Source: Geobacillus subterraneus
GTDB taxonomy: Bacteria > Bacillota > Bacilli > Bacillales > Anoxybacillaceae
Assembly: GCF_001618685.1 (NCBI RefSeq)
Contig: NZ_CP014342.1
Coordinates: forward strand, 1,488,001 to 1,552,000
DNA: 64,000 nt
Direction: 5' to 3'
In this document: piece after piece, positions 23,701-30,305 of the stretch
Layout of the letters: every line of letters begins with the position of its first letter
Position numbering within the stretch: the stretch's first letter is position 1
Notes under the pieces: model-generated
Database searches by the model: none
Told to the model about the DNA's origin: nothing
What the model saw: the letters and a program-made list of their open reading frames with translations, nothing else
Translations under genes and position numbers: made by a program

Positions 23701-24901
23701 CCTTTCGGCGCTGGCTGACGCCCGTCGGCAGGCTGGGGAGGCGTGGTATTATGACAGCCTCGGCTATGTATATGGAGCGCTCGGGCAGAACGAGCGGGAG
23801 AAAGAAGCGGTGGAAAAGGCGCTCTCGCTCGCTCCGCACGATCGCGAGGCGCTTCACCATTACGCCAAAGTGATGATAAAGGAAGGAAAAGCGAAAGAAG
23901 CGATGGAGATGCTCGAACAATTGATGGCCGAGTATCCGGGCGATGAATCGCTTTATGCCACTTACATCGCCATGTTTCCAAAAAACGGACGAGGCTTGGC
24001 GCGGCTGCGCCGCCGACTGAAGCGTTTGCAGGCCGACCGCCAGAGAAAACGTGCGATCTATGCGCGTGCTGCCGCAGCTCTTCTTCCGTATTGGGAAGAG
24101 GAGCTGCAGCGGATGGATGAAATGCCGGGGCGGTGGTGGACGAAAATGAAGGCATGGGTCGGGAAGTTTTCGTTGTTTTCCGCCATCATTGATTTGTACG
24201 AAGAGGCGATCAGCCTTGACCGCGAAAACGCGGAAGCGTATGCCGAGCTGGCTCGCTTTTATGCGGCGGTGGAACTGGAGGACGACGCCGCAAAAATGTG
24301 GCGCAAGGCGCTGGCGAGCGGTTGGGAGCCTGAACTGGCGCGTGAATTTGTCAAGCATTTGTTGGCGGCTGACGATGCCAAACAATGCCAAGAAGCGCAA
24401 ACATGGCTCGATCGGCTGCTCGCCGATGACCCCGATGATGTCGAGCTGCGCGTTTTGCAGGCTGCCGTTTGGCTTCAAGATGGGCGGCAGGAACAAGCCG
24501 AACGGCAGCTGCAGGCGATCGTGGCTGAAGAGCCGCTCGCCCGCGGCGCGCTCTTCTTGCTTGCCGAACGATATGAGGAAACGGGGCGCTTGCAAGAAGC
24601 GACAGCGCTTTGGGAGCGCTGCGCCGAATGGTATTCTGAAGACGGCGAGTGGCATCTGCATCTGGCGGCGATGTACGAGGAAATGGGGCGTCTCGACAAG
24701 GCGCTGGCGGCCATCGAACGGTGTGTTCATGCGGCGGAAGATGCCCGCCTTCGTTACGAGCGAGCCCGCTATCTTTCGCTCCTTGGGCGTTTCGATGAGG
24801 CGAAGCGGGAACTGGACCGGGTTCTTTCCAACGATGAGAGCGAAGAGTGGGCGGCGTTAGTGGCCGAGGAGCCGGCCTTTCAGCACATGGCCCGGGTGTG
24901 A
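20738..24901 (+). CDS. Very large TPR protein with embedded C39-like cysteine peptidase domain
   Basis: The 1387-residue protein consists mostly of tetratricopeptide-type helical hairpins (motifs such as YRGRIAF, ARYFRASLQLDPDQPEVW, KAACCYEQALALDGDD recurring about every 34 residues) from about residue 80 to 300 and 490 to 1380. Between them, residues 310-450 form a papain-like C39-type domain with Cys318 (NYCVPASIEMM), His396 (SSHVQVLFGYD) and Asp413 (YVQDPN), the order expected for C39/BtrH-like peptidases. No signal peptide or membrane segment is seen, so it is probably cytoplasmic. Function is unknown; a peptidase or amide-bond enzyme presented on a TPR scaffold is the inference. A -10 TATAAA at 20699-20704 and AAGGGAG precede the ATG. 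Confidence 0.85.
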   Translation: MNHIKPIALLVEEKRIVDALAQVRPHLENMGLFQWRPLMASWDSIEPFRALIRLFDYALMYRHSGLVARYAHRKLNTLQTLAWVCDEWLETRRPLDVEEALTPRLAQALEGKTDEPDEAIARAAFVLVRALLDMQRADEAREWMDVVARYETVPIHDKWGYFYIEIGDRKRAEQAVRAGLDDPKRGDMCYLLLADLYALDGRHHEALAVLEEGRRRFPQVLSFYAERARRLRDVGAYREALAAMEELDRLNPLHMHRRYFTHLRAELYDQLGEWEKLESLVRAEPQLEKTPYARALGRQRERAVVLPLVPVVQKHNYCVPASIEMMLRVLGAPRTQDEVAEHIFDVRGSKLSTTVQYLEELGFVCRFFIGSPARWKRFIDEGIPVLLSVDYEQSSHVQVLFGYDERLAAFYVQDPNVFDPFVVLEEEIEKWYAGTHYLSIVALPREKAALAAELPEEEDRYFRELHAFAEKMDEDEQAHFDAFVAFLRRHEHVPYTWLYVMKHFSSDEAKPLVLDYTGRVLKRYPGHNDLLLAAAKAYVYTQEMERAEQVLKQTKGNMQSPLYHYLRGRIAFFMSRYEEAARYFRASLQLDPDQPEVWSYKALALVYAGHTERGLICSQVAVRLYPGDLFIETNHGVLLFHAKRFAEAREWFDRLVRRERRDAYLWYERARCDLELGRRRKAERGFRVAKALDPREPYPYVVLADLYDDDGNREQAKAVLNEGLAAAERLAPLYVRLGDFYMDEGEAEKAACCYEQALALDGDDVFAQLGLASALVERGDGEAARRHVAELRTRFANNSEYWLNAGKWLMAYGFADDEEGRGTALSWLEEGLRLAQFDAEEAYEFYIDQLTTPALRERGRTFLEQLITARPSLASAHSSLGVLYERQNRPSKAMAVYREAAAMDHPLSLFRLAELCASLGRENEAKQHYEACLRADPSFALCHFRLAVLYGGEGEKEQQCAHLLQAVRLAPLRADIESMAALIEPSALLSALADARRQAGEAWYYDSLGYVYGALGQNEREKEAVEKALSLAPHDREALHHYAKVMIKEGKAKEAMEMLEQLMAEYPGDESLYATYIAMFPKNGRGLARLRRRLKRLQADRQRKRAIYARAAAALLPYWEEELQRMDEMPGRWWTKMKAWVGKFSLFSAIIDLYEEAISLDRENAEAYAELARFYAAVELEDDAAKMWRKALASGWEPELAREFVKHLLAADDAKQCQEAQTWLDRLLADDPDDVELRVLQAAVWLQDGRQEQAERQLQAIVAEEPLARGALFLLAERYEETGRLQEATALWERCAEWYSEDGEWHLHLAAMYEEMGRLDKALAAIERCVHAAEDARLRYERARYLSLLGRFDEAKRELDRVLSNDESEEWAALVAEEPAFQHMARV

Positions 24902-24991
24902 GCGGCGGCCTTCAAGCTTTTCTTTTGCTGAGAAGTTTGCTATTGTATGAGAAGAGAAGATGGACGAGACAAAAGGAGGTGAACGGGACGC

Positions 24992-25255
24992 ATGGAAGCG
25001 CCGATCGAATTATTCGTCTATATGTCGCTTGTCGGGGCATTGTGGATGATCGTAAAAGGGCATAAGAGCGCGCGTCGGAGAGCCGCTTCGCTGTTTTGTG
25101 AGCCGCTGTTGGCCTCTGTTCGCGAGCAAGGGGCGAATGGAAGCGCCACGAGCGCGGCGCTTCCATCGCGCCCGCCGTTTTTGCCGCAACGGCGGAAAAT
25201 CCCGATGCGGGAACAGGCCAGCCGAACGGATGAAGATGGAAGGCCCTCTCCTTGA
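24992..25255 (+). CDS. Small predicted single-pass membrane protein (87 aa)
   Basis: I do not recognise this protein. Residues 5-22 (IELFVYMSLVGALWMIVK) form one membrane segment, followed by a basic, Ala/Pro/Arg-rich tail. AAAGGAGGTG lies 12 nt before the ATG, a strong but slightly distant ribosome binding site. It follows the TPR gene by 90 nt and may be in its operon; the hairpin at its 3' end overlaps the last codons. The tail may be low-complexity or degenerate, so the 3' half is less certain. Confidence 0.5.
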   Translation: MEAPIELFVYMSLVGALWMIVKGHKSARRRAASLFCEPLLASVREQGANGSATSAALPSRPPFLPQRRKIPMREQASRTDEDGRPSP

Positions 25256-25296
25256 TGAACGCGCATCATGTTTGGACAAGATCAAGGAGGGCTTTT
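25242..25296 (+). terminator. Hairpin with long loop: terminator or ribosome-binding-site sequestering stem
   Basis: GGCCCTCTCCTTGAT pairs, with a small bulge, with ATCAAGGAGGGC across a loop of about 25 nt, followed by four T. It can terminate the preceding transcript. The 3' arm also contains AAGGAGG, the ribosome binding site of the ATG at 25298, so the stem would hide that site. Confidence 0.5.
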
Positions 25297-25297
25297 C

Positions 25298-25322
25298 ATG
25301 AAGAAATGGATCATGATTTTAT
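25298..25322 (+). pseudogene. Possible 5' stub of interrupted pncA
   Basis: An ATG at 25298, 6-7 nt after a strong AAGGAGG, opens about eight codons (MKKWIMIL) before the left end of the IS200/IS605-type element. Nicotinamidases of the family begin similarly (MKKAL-type, then the catalytic Asp). The Asp-containing part is absent. The match is too short to prove; the stub may be coincidental. Confidence 0.35.
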
Positions 25323-25330
25323 CTTAATTA

Positions 25331-25387
25331 GGCGAGAAGACTCCCACTTCAACGAAGCGAAGCGGAGTAAGTGGGAGATGAATCGCC
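25331..25387 (+). repeat. Left-end hairpin of the TnpB element
   Basis: Nested pairs GGCGA...TCGCC and CTCCCACTT...AAGTGGGAG form a stable imperfect palindrome. The inner arm CCCACTT/AAGTGGG recurs in the right end. Confidence 0.8.
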
Positions 25388-26349
25388 TTAACTATATTTT
25401 GCTGAAAATAGGATAGATTCAGTAAAATATAGTATCATATAGTTAGATGGGAGGTGAAAACATGTATTTTTGTATCAAACAACAGCTAAATGGTTTGACC
25501 AAAGAAGAATACTTGACTCTTCGAGAACTGTGCCATATTGCCAAGAACATGTACAACGTCGGATTGTACCATGTCAGACAATACTATTTTGAACACAAGG
25601 AATTTCTTAATTATGAGAAAAACGATCATCTTGCAAAAACTAACGAAAACTATAAGCTGTTAAACAGCAACATGGCACAGCAAATTTTAAAAAAGGTCAA
25701 TGAAGCCTTTAAATCTTTCTTTGGTTTGATCAGTCTTGCCAAACAAGGAAAATATGACTACAAGGCTATCAGTATTCCAAAATATCTTAAAAAAGATGGC
25801 TTTCATTCACTGATCATTGGCCAGATTCGTATAGACGGCAACAAATTCACGATACCGTATTCTCGCCTATTTAAAAAGACTCACAAGCCTATCACGATAA
25901 CGATTCCGCCTGTGTTGCTGGACAAAAAGATTAAGCAGATTGAAATCATTCCTAAGCATCATGCCAGGTTCTTTGAGATTCAGTACAAATATGAAATGCC
26001 TGAAGATCAAAGAGAATTAAATGACCAAAAAGCACTGGCCATTGATTTAGGATTAAACAATCTTGCCACTTGTGTCACATCAGACGGCAGATCATTCATC
26101 ATTGATGGGCGGAGATTAAAAAGTATAAATCAATGGTTTAACAAAGAAAATGCCAGACTTCAAAGCATAAAAGATAAGCAAAAAATCAAAGGCACCACTC
26201 GTAAACAGGCTTTGCTTGCTATGAATCGCAATAATAAAGTGAATGATTATATCAACAAGACTTGCCGTTACATCATTAACTACTGTATTGAAAATCAAAT
26301 TGGCAAACTTGTCATTGGCTATGCGGAAACATTACAACGCAATATTAAT

Positions 26350-26353
26350 CTAG
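26350..26353. repeat. CTAG target-site duplication, left copy
   Basis: CTAG directly abuts the inverted repeat of the IS1182-like element; the same tetranucleotide is at 27896-27899. Keeping only one copy restores the tnpB reading frame, which identifies it as a target duplication. Confidence 0.85.
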
Positions 26354-27819
26354 AAGGCCGGTGAATTAATGGGGCATAGACTTCCCACATGTCGAATTTT
26401 GGAGGCCATTCTCCCCGCCGTTTGGCGCCAAAGGATGGGAAGACGAGCAGGACTTCCTGCTCCCAATTCCGGTTTTGCGCACGCCAAAGAGCCGGTCCCC
26501 CCTCGTTTTTTTCGAAACCGGCACAATCGCTTCAGATTTTGCACGACGGCGGTCAACAGTGCCTGTTCTTCCATGGCGTAAAGGCCCCGGCTTCGGGCCC
26601 GGTCCAGCCCGTGACATTCCTTCCCTTCGGCGAACACATGCTCACAACGCGTGCGAAGGGCTTGAATGGATCGATAGCCGCCCTGTTGTTGAATGAGCCT
26701 CGCTTGATTGCGAATCTGAACGTCTCGGACTTTCGCCTGGCGCTTTGCTTCCTGAGCGGGATCCTTCGCCCGGCGCTTCCAGGTTGGAATCTCCTCCATC
26801 TCCTTGCGGCGCAACGGCACGAGCGGTGTGATGCCTTGAACGAAGAGCGCTTCCAGATACTCGGTGGTGCCATACGCTTTGTCCGCAGACAAGGTCCGAA
26901 TCGTAATCGACGGGTGGCGAAACTGAATCGAAGCCAGCTGCTCCAAACTCGTCTCCCGTTCCGCCGTTCCAGTGGCGAGGCTGGCCCGTCTGGATAAAAT
27001 CACGCGCGACTGGACATCGATGACGTCGTGCACCAGATACCGAGGATACGCTTCCTGCCCTTTGCCTTTCTTGTACAACCGGGCATCCGGATCCGTCACG
27101 CTTCGATGGGTCCGGTTGGAAAACGTGGCTCCACGGAAGTTTCCCCGTTCTTCGGCATGGACGCGTTCCCCTGATTTTGGAGACGGAGAGGGTGGGTCGT
27201 CATCCGGATCCCGGGCCTCGGTCTGTTCATCTTCCCGGGCAGTGCGGGCCAGATAGTCTTCCAACGTCTCCACCGGAGCGAGCTTGACCTCCCGCAAGCT
27301 GTGGATCGAGGCATTCGCCCGCACTTGGGTGCCGTCAGCCGCCGCATGGACATCCGGCGAGACCAACCCCGCCGCGATGCATTGATCCACCACATAGGTC
27401 ATCAGCCGGTCAAAGATTCCATGTTGGCGCCAGCGTTTCCGTGTTTTGACGAGCGTCGTTCGATCCGGCAGTGTGGGGTGATGAGGATCCGGATGGAGCA
27501 CGGATTCAAAGTCGAGACCGCAAAACCACAAGTATCCGGCATGCATGGGGAGGATCTCATACAACTCCCGCTCAGAGTGGTCGAACAAATACGAGAGCAG
27601 CATTAGGCGAAGCAGCCGTTCCGGATCCGCCGCCGGGCGACCCGTTTTTTCCGTGTACAGGGGAGCCACCCAATCGTGAATGACGGAAAAGTCAACCGCT
27701 TCGTTGATTTGGCGCAAGATATGATGTGGAGGAACGAGTTCTTCCATGTCGATGACTTGAAACAGACGAGGCTGAGTCGAAGGGTTTTTGGGGGCTTTCA
27801 TGATCCGCTCACGCTCCAT
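26350..27819 (-). CDS. IS1182-family transposase
   Basis: The 489-residue DDE transposase has the N-terminal DUF772-type domain (MEELVPPHHILRQI to LFDHSERELYE) and a catalytic core with Asp in AADGTQVRAN, Asp in LSADKAYG and a likely Glu in HVFAEGKECHG. Length and layout fit IS1182. No frameshift or internal stop is seen, so it may be active. The start at 27819 is the first of two Met (27801 is the other); AAGGAAG lies upstream. The TAG stop is made of the flanking CTAG target duplication, so the element itself does not encode its stop codon. Confidence 0.9.
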   Translation of the reverse strand: MERERIMKAPKNPSTQPRLFQVIDMEELVPPHHILRQINEAVDFSVIHDWVAPLYTEKTGRPAADPERLLRLMLLSYLFDHSERELYEILPMHAGYLWFCGLDFESVLHPDPHHPTLPDRTTLVKTRKRWRQHGIFDRLMTYVVDQCIAAGLVSPDVHAAADGTQVRANASIHSLREVKLAPVETLEDYLARTAREDEQTEARDPDDDPPSPSPKSGERVHAEERGNFRGATFSNRTHRSVTDPDARLYKKGKGQEAYPRYLVHDVIDVQSRVILSRRASLATGTAERETSLEQLASIQFRHPSITIRTLSADKAYGTTEYLEALFVQGITPLVPLRRKEMEEIPTWKRRAKDPAQEAKRQAKVRDVQIRNQARLIQQQGGYRSIQALRTRCEHVFAEGKECHGLDRARSRGLYAMEEQALLTAVVQNLKRLCRFRKKRGGTGSLACAKPELGAGSPARLPILWRQTAGRMASKIRHVGSLCPINSPAF

Positions 27820-27895
27820 TCCAACGATTTTTCTTCCTTTTTCGACATAAGCCCCCTAAATCCCTGCCTCAGGGTGTACTTTTTTCACCGGCCTT
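26354..27895 (-). mobile_element. IS1182-like insertion sequence, about 1.54 kb
   Basis: The ends are perfect 12-bp inverted repeats (AAGGCCGGTGAA at 26354-26365 and TTCACCGGCCTT at 27884-27895), or 16 bp if the palindromic CTAG is counted. It is flanked by CTAG duplications and contains one transposase gene on the minus strand. It is inserted in tnpB. Confidence 0.9.
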
Positions 27896-27899
27896 CTAG
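27896..27899. repeat. CTAG target-site duplication, right copy
   Basis: This is the second copy of the CTAG flanking the IS1182-like element, immediately followed by the resumed tnpB frame (GKKTNQNFVNIP). Confidence 0.85.
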
Positions 27900-28277
27900 G
27901 AAAAAAGACAAATCAAAACTTTGTCAATATTCCTCTCGGTAACATAAAAGAAAAACTAGAATATCTTTGTGAATTTTACGGCATTGAATTCTTGAAACAG
28001 GAAGAATCATATACGTCTCAAGCCAGCTTTTTTGACGGCGATGAGATTCCTGAATATAATGCCGACAATCCAAAAGAATATAAGTTCAGCGGCAAACGTA
28101 TTAAGCGCGGCTTGTATCGAACAAAGTCTGGCAAACTAATTAATGCTGATGTCAATGGCGCATTAAACATCTTAAAGAAAAGTAAAGCTGTAGACCTGAG
28201 TGTCTTATGCTCTAGCGGCGAAGTGGACACGCCTCAAAGAATAAGGATTGCTTGAAGCAGTCAAACTTCTTTGGAAG

Positions 28278-28315
28278 CCCCCACTTCAAATTTTCGCTAG
28301 AAAATTAAGTGGGGG
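28278..28315 (+). repeat. Right-end hairpin of the TnpB element
   Basis: CCCCCACTT and AAGTGGGGG pair around an AT-rich loop that itself contains AATTTTC/GAAAATT. In TnpB elements this end forms the 3' part of the guide (omega/re) RNA, whose guide is the flanking sequence just beyond, here pncA (family knowledge applied to this site). Confidence 0.75.
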
Positions 28316-28318
28316 TAG

Positions 28319-28750
28319 TTCACTGATCACGGCGACTTTGTTGTATTTGCCATTGATAAGCATACGGCAGGAGATCATTATCACCCGGAAACAAAGCTGT
28401 TTCCGCCGCATAATATCGAAGGGACGAAAGGGCGGAGGCTATACGGGGAGCTCGAGGAAGTATATCAGGCGAACAAGCATAAAGAACATGTGTACTGGAT
28501 GGACAAGACGCGGTACAGCGCGTTCGCCGGGACCGATTTAGAACTGAAATTGCGCGAACGAGGGATCACGGAAGTGCATTTGGTCGGCTGCTGCACGGAT
28601 ATTTGCGTCCTTCATACGGCAGTCGATGCGTACAACAAAGGCTTTCGCATTGTCGTCCACCGGCGGGCGGTCGCGAGTTTTGACGCGGCCGGCCATGAGT
28701 GGGCGCTGCGTCATTTTTGCCATACGCTAGGTGCAGAAATAGTGGAATAA
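28319..28750 (+). pseudogene. pncA: Nicotinamidase PncA, N-terminally truncated by insertion
   Basis: The frame from 28319 reads FTDHGDFVVFAIDKHTAG and continues for 143 codons, matching nicotinamidase (cysteine hydrolase family) from about residue 41 of a roughly 183-residue protein. The metal site (DKH...H), the catalytic Lys in MDKTRYSAF and the nucleophile Cys in CTDICVLH are intact, but the first 40 residues with the catalytic Asp are missing. The enzyme converts nicotinamide to nicotinate for NAD salvage. Loss of the Asp should inactivate it. An internal ATG at 28490 has no obvious ribosome binding site. pncB follows 82 nt downstream. Confidence 0.85.
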
Positions 28751-28832
28751 TGGGGAAAACGTGATAGAATAGACGGTGAAAATGGTTGTAATTTGGCGGC
28801 GCAGTCATTTGTGTGTTGGGGGTTCTGCATTC

Positions 28833-30305
28833 ATGAACGAAAAATATGCCGATGACAGTTTAATGCTCCATACGGACTTATATCAAATCAACATGGTTGA
28901 AACCTACTGGGAAGACGGGATGCATGAGCGCCGGGCCGTGTTTGAGGTGTTTTTTCGCAAGCTGCCGTTTGGCAACGGCTATGCCGTCTTTGCCGGGCTT
29001 GAGCGCGTAATACAGTTTTTGCAGGGATTTCGTTTTTCCGACAGCGATATCGACTATTTGCGCAATGAGCTTGGCTACCGCGACGATTTCTTGAACTATT
29101 TGCGGACGCTTCGTTTTACCGGGACGGTTCGTTCGATGCGGGAAGGGGAAATCGTCTTTGCCAACGAGCCGATTATGCGCATTGAGGCGCCGCTTGCGGA
29201 GGCGCAGCTCATCGAAACGGCGATTTTAAACATCATCAATTTCCAGACGCTCATCGCCACGAAAGCGTCGCGCATTAAACATATCCTCGGGGACGAACCG
29301 GCTTTAGAGTTTGGCAGCCGGCGGGCGCAGGAGATGGACGCGGCGCTGTGGGGAGCGCGCGCGGCGTATATCGGCGGGATTGAAGCGACATCGAACGTGC
29401 GGGCCGGCAAGCTGTTTGGCATTCCGGTCGCCGGGACGCACGCGCATTCCATGATTCAAGCGTATCAGGATGAATACGTAGCATTTCACAAATATGCACG
29501 CCGCCATAAGGACTGCGTATTTCTTGTTGATACGTACGATACGTTGAAATCGGGGGTGCCGAACGCCATTCGCGTCGCCAAAGAGCTTGGTGATCAGATC
29601 AATTTTATCGGCATTCGCATCGACAGCGGCGATTTGGCCTATTTGTCAAAAGAAGCGCGGAAAATGCTTGATGAGGCTGGATTCCCGAACGCGAAAATTT
29701 TTGCTTCGAACGATTTGGATGAAGATACGATTTTAAACTTGAAATCGCAAGGGGCGAAAATCGATGTGTGGGGAATCGGCACGAAGCTGATCACGGCATA
29801 CGACCAGCCGGCGTTAGGCGCGGTGTATAAGATGGTGGCGATCGAAAACGAAGCCGGCGAGATGGTCGATACGATCAAAATTAGCGGCAACCCGGAGAAA
29901 GTGACGACGCCGGGGCTGAAGCGGGTGTACCGCATCGTCAATAAAATCAATCATAAAGCAGAAGGCGACTACATCGCCTTAGAAAGCGAGAACCCGCAGC
30001 AAGAAGAGCGGCTGAAAATGTTCCATCCGGTGTACACGTTCATCAGCAAATTCGTCACCAATTTTGAAGCGCGCGATTTGCATGAAACGATTTTTGACAA
30101 CGGCAAACTCGTCTACACATCGCCGCCGCTTTCCGATATTCAGGCATACGCGAAGAAGAGTTTGCGCTTATTTTGGGAGGAGTACAAACGAACGCTCAAC
30201 CCCGAGCAATATCCGGTCGATTTGAGCCAGGCGTGCTGGGACAATAAGATGGAAAACATCCGCAAAGTGAAAGAAAAGCTTGCGCACCCATCGGCGAACG
30301 AGTGA
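28833..30305 (+). CDS. pncB: Nicotinate phosphoribosyltransferase
   Basis: The 490-residue enzyme couples nicotinate and PRPP to nicotinate mononucleotide in NAD salvage. Landmarks are HTDLYQINM near residue 13, the phosphoacceptor-type His in VAGTHAHSM (about 210), FLVDTYDT and GIRIDSGDLAYLS (about 260), and GIGTKLITAYDQPALG (about 330). It is full length for the Bacillus-type family. The ATG at 28833 has GGGGG 11 nt upstream. In B. subtilis it is paired with pncA; here the upstream pncA is broken, so transcription may come from a local TAGAAT at 28765-28770 or read out of the element. Confidence 0.94.
   Translation: MNEKYADDSLMLHTDLYQINMVETYWEDGMHERRAVFEVFFRKLPFGNGYAVFAGLERVIQFLQGFRFSDSDIDYLRNELGYRDDFLNYLRTLRFTGTVRSMREGEIVFANEPIMRIEAPLAEAQLIETAILNIINFQTLIATKASRIKHILGDEPALEFGSRRAQEMDAALWGARAAYIGGIEATSNVRAGKLFGIPVAGTHAHSMIQAYQDEYVAFHKYARRHKDCVFLVDTYDTLKSGVPNAIRVAKELGDQINFIGIRIDSGDLAYLSKEARKMLDEAGFPNAKIFASNDLDEDTILNLKSQGAKIDVWGIGTKLITAYDQPALGAVYKMVAIENEAGEMVDTIKISGNPEKVTTPGLKRVYRIVNKINHKAEGDYIALESENPQQEERLKMFHPVYTFISKFVTNFEARDLHETIFDNGKLVYTSPPLSDIQAYAKKSLRLFWEEYKRTLNPEQYPVDLSQACWDNKMENIRKVKEKLAHPSANE

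What the first reader, a model, noticed from the sequence alone, without database searches (positions are those of the whole stretch)
25323..28320. Nested transposons: IS1182-like element inside tnpB inside pncA
The tnpB frame stops at the inner element's left end and continues at its right end. Removing 26354-27895 and one CTAG rejoins INL to GKKTNQNFVNIP in frame, giving a 415-residue TnpB. The order of events is therefore readable: the TnpB element entered pncA first, the IS1182-like element silenced TnpB later. The inner insertion looks recent because tnpB shows no other lesion.
Basis: seen in the sequence. Interest (0 to 1): 0.75.

Follow-up and report, generated by a model that had tools for sequence, protein, structure and literature searches.

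The report
Nested transposons bridging a gene deletion
One jumping gene sits inside another in a heat-loving Geobacillus, and the outer one does not simply interrupt a vitamin-recycling gene but spans a missing stretch of about 1.2 kb that took out that gene's start and a neighbouring membrane-insertase gene.

Summary
The nesting is real. An IS1182-like element (26354-27895, CTAG on both sides) interrupts a 415-residue tnpB; six uninterrupted sister copies carry the same junction with CTAG once, and removing the insert plus one CTAG restores the frame. Three of four IS1182 copies are identical, so the insertion looks recent.

'Inside pncA' is half right. The right flank is pncA (after about codon 40). 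The left flank is the first eight codons of a second yidC gene that lies 1.0-1.3 kb upstream of pncA in 11 of 13 congeners. The outer element bridges a deletion (1221 bp against G001) running from one TTTAT target site to another. No other isochorismatase and one other YidC were found in the genome.

The pattern recurs: of 35 copies examined, 20 have clean empty sites, 9 are non-collinear, 6 unresolved; in 8 of the 9 the right flank begins directly after a second TTTAT in at least one relative. Copies recombine (144 of 253 site pairs show four gametes), so recombination between copies at two TTTAT sites is preferred (0.45); a transposase-made deletion is the rival (0.33).

The parts
25298..25322 (+). 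remnant of a second yidC-family gene (codons 1-8, MKKWIMIL), ending in the TTTAT target site 25318-25322
   Evidence: left 200 bp 96% identical to G001 (L042/L090), which reads ATGAAGAAATGGATCATGATTTTAT|TGG at the start of a 249-aa gene; 60KD_IMP E 4.1e-56 for the G001 protein
25323..28323 (+). outer IS200/IS605-type, TnpB-only (IS1341-like) element, 1455 bp without the insert; left end after TTTAT, right end ...TTCAC
   Evidence: boundaries shared by the copies in the genome; terminal hairpins
25330..25388 (+). left-end hairpin
   Evidence: fold z -3.58, 0 of 200 shuffles as good
25462..26353 (+). tnpB 5' part (297 codons and the first base of the next); as it stands the frame runs to a stop at 26362-26364
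   Evidence: OrfB_IS605 PF01385 E 1.9e-36; ORF list
26350..26353 (.). CTAG target copy, left; on the minus strand it supplies the transposase stop codon TAG
26354..27895 (-). inner IS1182-like element, 1542 bp, 12-bp TIR
   Evidence: four full copies in the genome, three identical
26353..27819 (-). IS1182-like transposase, 489 aa
   Evidence: DUF772 + DDE_Tnp_1; best NCBIfam hit NF033551, 229.7 bits, below its 270 cut-off
27896..27899 (.). CTAG target copy, right
27900..28255 (+). tnpB 3' part and stop
   Evidence: continues the sister-copy frame; this part carries PF07282 in the intact sister
28277..28316 (+). right-end hairpin (centroid structure)
   Evidence: fold z -6.31, 0 of 200 shuffles as good
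28325..28750 (+). pncA remnant (141 codons and stop, lacks about the first 40 codons)
   Evidence: Isochorismatase PF00857 positions 44-164 of 175, E 2.8e-29; only such hit in the genome
24501..25317 (.). stretch of 0.3-0.8 kb left of the element that resembles G001 more than G005, while most of the surroundings resembles G005
   Evidence: sliding identity: 24501-25000 88.8% vs 83.9%, 25001-25322 96.0% vs 86.9%

Best explanation
SHOWN: an IS1182-like element inserted at CTAG inside tnpB of one of 21 near-identical TnpB-only IS200/IS605-type elements. That outer element joins two chromosomal sites that lie 1.0-1.3 kb apart in relatives, one in the start of a second yidC gene and one in pncA, each a TTTAT in at least one relative, and what lies between is gone. 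INFERRED (best-supported mechanism): two same-orientation copies of the element sat after the two TTTAT sites, on one chromosome or one of them on incoming DNA from another Geobacillus, and homologous recombination within the 1455-bp element left one copy with the left flank of one and the right flank of the other. IS1182 broke tnpB there, or already in a parent copy. Consequences inferred, not tested: no nicotinamidase, one YidC left, this TnpB copy inactive, its RNA guide now read from pncA.
For: Deletion: (gap 1221 bp to G001 with TTTAT at both ends; pncA TTTAT in 12 of 13 relatives, the 13th lacks that part). Same pattern in other copies: L012 564-568 bp (7 relatives; far TTTAT in 6), L011 18 bp (1 relative), L027 69-76 bp (2 nearest), L123 36 bp (3 of 4), L117 265 bp in G000, L108, L021, against a TTTAT frequency of 0.00105 per position. 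Copies recombine: 144 of 253 pairs of informative sites show all four combinations in 16 full-length copies. Flank ancestry differs on the two sides: left end G001 96.0% vs G005 86.9%, right G005 97-98%; L012 right flank 100% to G009 over 301 bp in mostly G005-like surroundings; L123 right flank 99.5-100% to G000, left 80-91%. Orientation agrees with local GC skew in 21 of 23 copies, so neighbouring copies would be direct repeats.
Against: Some distances between the two TTTAT sites are very short (18, 36, about 70 bp); with 28 uniform independent insertions 0.28 pairs within 1.3 kb and 0.022 within 100 bp are expected. No pair of the copies found in G000 lies closer than about 12 kb. L011 shows no ancestry switch (98% to G005 on both sides). 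Ancestry switches also occur where no element lies, e.g. near 950.6-951.8 and 953.4 kb in the L012 region and near 35.5 kb in the window, so the switch at the element is weaker evidence than it looks. TTTAT at the yidC site is seen in 1 of 11 relatives. No strain with both parent copies was found.
Confidence: 0.45

Rival explanations
1. Transposase-made deletion. A TnpA of the IS200/IS605 kind, acting on single-stranded lagging-strand template, joins the element's right end to a second nearby TTTAT instead of excising the element (or cuts two TTTAT sites during insertion), deleting what lies between; the TnpA was later lost or lies outside the assembly.
For: Eight of nine non-collinear copies have TTTAT exactly at the far breakpoint in at least one relative; the distances that could be measured are under about 1.4 kb, some only 18-76 bp (L021 could not be measured); L108 in G011 shares its left site with the clean copy L017 of G000, while 1350 bp right of the element in G000 are replaced by 124 bp in G011; replication-linked orientation; hairpin ends; Y1 transposases in 11 of 14 genus genomes.
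Against: Does not by itself explain different ancestry of the two flanks; no TnpA found in this genome with two models; such deletions were not found in the papers searched; recombination between copies is shown.
Confidence: 0.33
2. Deletion by slippage or microhomology joining between two 5-bp TTTAT repeats beside (or before) the insertion, unrelated to the transposon's enzymes.
For: The breakpoints are TTTAT direct repeats; the shortest cases (18-76 bp) would suit slippage.
Against: Repeats elsewhere in the flanks should serve as often, yet 8 of 9 far breakpoints are at the element's own target motif; among the relatives' sites read none without the element had the same deletion.
Confidence: 0.12
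3. Simple insertion of the TnpB element into pncA, with a divergent pncA 5' end.
For: The left flank has an ATG and reads MKKWIMIL, like a gene start.
Against: The sequence is the start of a YidC-like gene in 11 of 13 relatives, 1.0-1.3 kb from the pncA junction.
Confidence: 0.03
4. Assembly error at a repeat present in 21 copies.
For: Both the outer element and the inner IS are multicopy; L128 in G011 looks like a chimera of two other copies.
Against: G000 is a single contig of 3,474,426 bases rated 100% complete; a complete pncA and a second YidC were found nowhere else in it, which fits a real deletion; the pattern recurs in G011 and, in a variant, G006.
Confidence: 0.05

Closest known systems
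IS1341-type (TnpB-only) members of the IS200/IS605 family
   Same: TnpB alone between hairpin ends, insertion after a fixed short motif (TTTAT) without target duplication
   Different: 21 copies with no Y1 transposase found in the genome; 9 of 35 copies examined are non-collinear with relatives, most of them joining two TTTAT sites. TTTAT as an insertion motif is in print for group A IStrons (passages of PMC4227781); TnpB-only elements are discussed in PMC9956272 (passages)
IS1182 family
   Same: DUF772 + DDE_Tnp_1 transposase, best NCBIfam match NF033551
   Different: Score below the curated cut-off; 4-bp target duplication, CTAG or TTAG in the own genome, that supplies the transposase stop codon. 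Whether other family members do this was not established
Deletion-coupled insertions and elements-in-elements of Haloquadratum walsbyi (passages of PMC3119063)
   Same: Insertions coupled to loss of chromosomal DNA; IS605-type elements hit by other mobile elements; TnpB elements spreading although most tnpA genes are broken
   Different: For the deletion-coupled insertions the authors report no sequence conservation that would suggest targeting; here both breakpoints are TTTAT in several cases
IS605 elements shuffled by recombination in Halanaerobium hydrogeniformans (passages of PMC7290912)
   Same: Evidence that tnpB copies in one genome recombine
   Different: The passages seen do not mention flanking deletions between target motifs

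Membership tests
IS200/IS605 superfamily, IS1341-type | TnpB protein | tested here: met
   Sister copy L011: NF040570 guided_TnpB 210.2 bits (cut-off 100), PF01385 and PF07282 over cut-off
IS200/IS605 superfamily, IS1341-type | subterminal hairpins at both ends | tested here: met
IS200/IS605 superfamily, IS1341-type | insertion 3' of a fixed short motif, no target duplication | tested here: met
   TTTAT before all 20 own copies that keep a left end, window included, and 22 two-ended copies of relatives; clean empty sites with a single TTTAT
IS200/IS605 superfamily, IS1341-type | no tnpA in the element | tested here: met
   the 1455-bp element holds tnpB only; no Y1 transposase found in the genome with PF01797 or NF033573
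IS200/IS605 superfamily, IS1341-type | replication-linked orientation | tested here: met
   21 of 23 copies agree with the sign of local GC skew
IS200/IS605 superfamily, IS1341-type | RNA-guided nuclease activity | not testable with these tools
   needs a cleavage assay
IS1182 family | family transposase model | tested here: inconclusive
   NF033551 is the best hit, E 7.1e-68, but 229.7 bits against a cut-off of 270
IS1182 family | terminal inverted repeats and a short target duplication | tested here: met
   12-bp TIR; CTAG, CTAG, TTAG, TTAG at the four own copies; that this defines the family is recalled
Nicotinamidase PncA | complete isochorismatase domain | tested here: not met
   only positions 44-164 of 175 are matched; about the first 40 codons are missing

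The most novel reading that the evidence does not exclude
TnpB-only elements of the IS200/IS605 kind make deletions as part of their movement: the right end is joined to a second TTTAT downstream on the same single strand, removing the DNA between. Because the RNA guide is read from the right flank, each such deletion would also give the element a new guide that targets the undeleted allele (TTTAT plus the new flank), so that TnpB could drive the deletion through a population.
Probability: 0.25. Interest if true: 0.65.

Novelty: new member of a known kind. Interest (0 to 1): 0.4.

Why it matters
The nesting itself is ordinary. What matters is that a TnpB element here marks a target-to-target deletion that removed parts of two host genes, and that this recurs in Geobacillus (9 of 35 copies examined non-collinear). 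It gives a natural data set for asking how TnpB elements spread without a resident transposase, and whether recombination between copies, transposase chemistry or TnpB-driven repair reshapes genomes around them. It also predicts a testable phenotype: loss of nicotinamide salvage through PncA.

Tried and rejected
Rfam scan of 24800-29000: four weak matches to families of animals and archaea, all below their gathering scores. PDB sequence search with the intact sister TnpB: no match at 1e-3. Autonomous partner: of the ten Y1 loci fetched (L098-L107), L098 (G012) has a right-end-like sequence with the same GTAGTTCAC terminus, and L100, L101 and L107 have weakly similar left ends (the right-end pattern was looked for in six of the ten); not followed further. 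Plasmid collection: the right end matched one record over 62% of its length, the tnpB 5' part five records at 60-80% identity; no helper identified.

Left out of the count: L022 (tandem repeats in G001), L025, L026, L118, L119, L125 are the six unresolved. Six of the 22 two-ended copies of relatives (L116, L121, L122, L126, L128, L130) were not sent to the empty-site search. Own copies without a left end (L007, L016, L020) or a right end (L008) were not scored. Weak spots in the count: L009 and L015 are called clean on shorter or weaker matches (89% over 89 bases; 73%). L111 (G006) has CTTAT, not TTTAT, at the far breakpoint in three relatives and is the ninth, non-fitting case. L117 has no TTTAT at the left site in G000 and G003. 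L012 has TTCAT at the far site in one of seven relatives and CTTAT at the near site in two. L021's right flank reads like a transporter by eye only.

Meers et al. 2023 on Geobacillus TnpB is recalled only; it is not held. IS870 and the target-strand chemistry of TnpA beyond the passages seen are recalled, not looked up. Searches on IS1182 with CTAG and stop codon listed no paper about the stop-codon feature (listings only). All ten paper searches are used. Papers seen in passages only: PMC8612924, PMC7290912, PMC6006769, PMC2806898, PMC3119063, PMC4227781, PMC9956272; PMC11870625 gave no passage for the terms asked.
Full report
CHECK OF THE OBSERVATION. The inner element is bounded by perfect inverted repeats, 26350-26365 and 27884-27899, made of a 12-bp TIR plus CTAG on each side. 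The own genome (G000, one contig of 3,474,426 bases; window = C1:1488001-1552000) holds four full copies and one short right-end remnant; three are identical over 1542 bp and the fourth differs at 5 positions. The outer element has 21 tnpB copies at 98-100% plus two shortened ones and three distant relatives. Six uninterrupted copies have exactly the window's junction with CTAG once (L008, L011, L012, L017, L019, L028). Without the insert and one CTAG, the window tnpB reads 415 residues and then stops; 18 sisters compare in frame, 16 of them without an internal stop.

WHAT THE OUTER ELEMENT IS. The intact sister L011 gives guided_TnpB NF040570 210.2 bits, and OrfB_IS605 and Cas12f1-like_TNB over cut-off. 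Both ends form hairpins that none of 200 shuffles matches. All 20 own copies that keep a left end have TTTAT before it, and the right end reads TTCAC, so the element is 25323-28323. There is no tnpA in it, and none was found in the genome with PF01797 or NF033573, while 11 of 14 genus genomes have PF01797 hits. A plasmid outside the assembly cannot be excluded. The copies' strand agrees with the sign of local GC skew in 21 of 23, as expected of single-strand transposition linked to replication (PMC8612924, passages).

WHERE IT SITS. The right flank is pncA: isochorismatase domain from position 44, and in 12 of 13 congeners CAG-TTTAT directly precedes the window's flank (the 13th, L045, lacks that part of pncA). 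The left flank is not pncA. In 11 of 13 congeners it lies 1.0-1.3 kb upstream of the pncA site and starts a gene of 249 codons; the G001 protein is 60KD_IMP/YidC. In the other two (G002, G003) it was not found within the 1.5 kb fetched. The nearest relative for the left flank, G001, reads ATGATTTTAT|TGG there, with 1221 bp between the two TTTAT ends; the other ten have no TTTAT at that place. The window therefore lacks the yidC gene after codon 8 and about the first 40 codons of pncA. The genome has no other isochorismatase hit and one other YidC. Inference: no nicotinamidase, second YidC lost.

IS THIS SPECIAL TO THIS COPY? I searched the joined flanks of 18 further own copies (six of them again) and of 16 of 22 two-ended copies of relatives, and read the sites where loci were at hand. 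With the window copy that makes 35. Clean (20): own L009, L010, L013, L014, L015, L017, L018, L019, L023, L024, L028; relatives' L109, L110, L112, L114, L115, L120, L127, L129, L133. Non-collinear (9): window; L011 (18 bp, one relative); L012 (564-568 bp, seven relatives); L027 (69-76 bp in the two nearest, other spacing in more distant ones); L021 (its right flank lies elsewhere in G005 and G007); L123 (36 bp in G000, G004, G007; one base off in G012); L117 (265 bp in G000); L108 (1350 bp in G000 against 124 bp in G011); L111. Unresolved (6): L022, L025, L026, L118, L119, L125. The row lists hold the best matches only (one search says that more are not listed), so a relative not named is not thereby shown to lack the site. 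In 8 of the 9 non-collinear cases the right flank starts right after TTTAT in at least one relative; in L111 it is CTTAT in three relatives. TTTAT occurs at 0.00105 per position in the window. The left TTTAT is also present in relatives for the window (1 of 11), L012 (5 of 7, CTTAT in 2), L011 (1 of 1), L021 (G007), L123 (3 of 4) and L108 (empty site of G012); it is absent for L117, unknown for L111 and shifted by indels for L027.

MECHANISM. Points for recombination between copies: copies in G000 recombine (144 of 253 informative site pairs carry all four combinations among 16 full-length copies; recurrent mutation is an unlikely but possible contributor). Flank ancestry differs on the two sides: left of the window copy 0.3-0.8 kb is nearer to G001 (96.0% vs 86.9% in the last 0.3 kb), to the right G005 is nearer (97-98%), as in most of the region; L012 and L123 show the mirror picture. 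The fixed orientation makes neighbouring copies direct repeats. Points against: three very short distances, while 0.28 pairs within 1.3 kb and 0.022 within 100 bp are expected for 28 uniformly placed insertions; no ancestry switch at L011; and ancestry switches without any element in the same regions, which made me lower this reading from 0.5 to 0.45 and raise the rival from 0.3 to 0.33. The rival, a one-ended reaction of TnpA that joins the right end to a second TTTAT on the same strand, explains the short cases and the exact motif better and fits L108, which has the same left site as G000's clean copy L017 but a different right flank. Both may act.

THE INNER ELEMENT. The transposase ends in the target copy: its stop codon, TAG or TAA, lies in the CTAG/TTAG duplication in all four own copies and in the target copy of four named Geobacillus loci whose frame reaches the end (L135, L136, L137, L140; L140 has ATAG), 8 of 8; L138 and the more distant loci stop earlier or could not be scored. 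A comparable stop-from-CTAG case, IS870, is recalled and was not looked up.

ORDER OF EVENTS. The TnpB element is older than the IS1182 insertion in it. Whether IS1182 came before or after the deletion is not readable. None of the other tnpB copies found in the genome carries this insert.

NOVELTY. Every part belongs to known kinds, and deletions by recombination between insertion sequences are established knowledge. The recurrent TTTAT-to-TTTAT joining by a TnpB-only element was not found in the library searches made, which cover open-licence papers only.

Noticed in passing
window 26350-26353; L001-L004, L135, L136, L137, L140: The IS1182-like transposase has no stop codon of its own: TAG/TAA is supplied by the 4-bp target duplication in 8 of 8 scorable copies.
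   Followed up: partly
L001 and L005: IS1182 ends lie head to tail with one CTAG between two ends, as if the CTAG beside an existing copy were reused as target.
   Followed up: no
G000:C1:2162804-2164352 (L004) and L009: Another IS1182 copy sits about 20 bp beyond the right end of another TnpB element, next to where its RNA guide would be read.
   Followed up: no
L003 / L097: An IS1182 copy sits between the arms of a CTCCCACCT/AGGTGGGAG hairpin, beside a frame that by eye looks like a multicopper oxidase.
   Followed up: no
L018: Another tnpB copy is interrupted by an insert of about 115 bp with TATAAGTTG-type inverted ends, apparently a miniature element with a TA duplication.
   Followed up: no
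L027, L028; L112, L129, L130: Internally shortened forms of the TnpB element occur with the same length at different sites (L027, L028) and in different genomes (1067 bp in G013 and G011), so deletion derivatives seem to move.
   Followed up: no
G000 whole genome; L098 in G012: 21 near-identical TnpB elements but no Y1 transposase found; a Y1 locus of G012 (L098) has a related right end and may be an autonomous partner.
   Followed up: partly
L045 (G012): pncA of G012 has its own internal deletion: after MERALIIIDYT the frame jumps to the 3' part and soon stops, so pncA seems lost independently there.
   Followed up: partly
L128, L121, L126 (G011): L128 has about 1.2 kb of left flank nearly identical to L121 and about 1.1 kb of right flank nearly identical to L126: a chimera by recombination or an assembly artefact.
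   Followed up: partly
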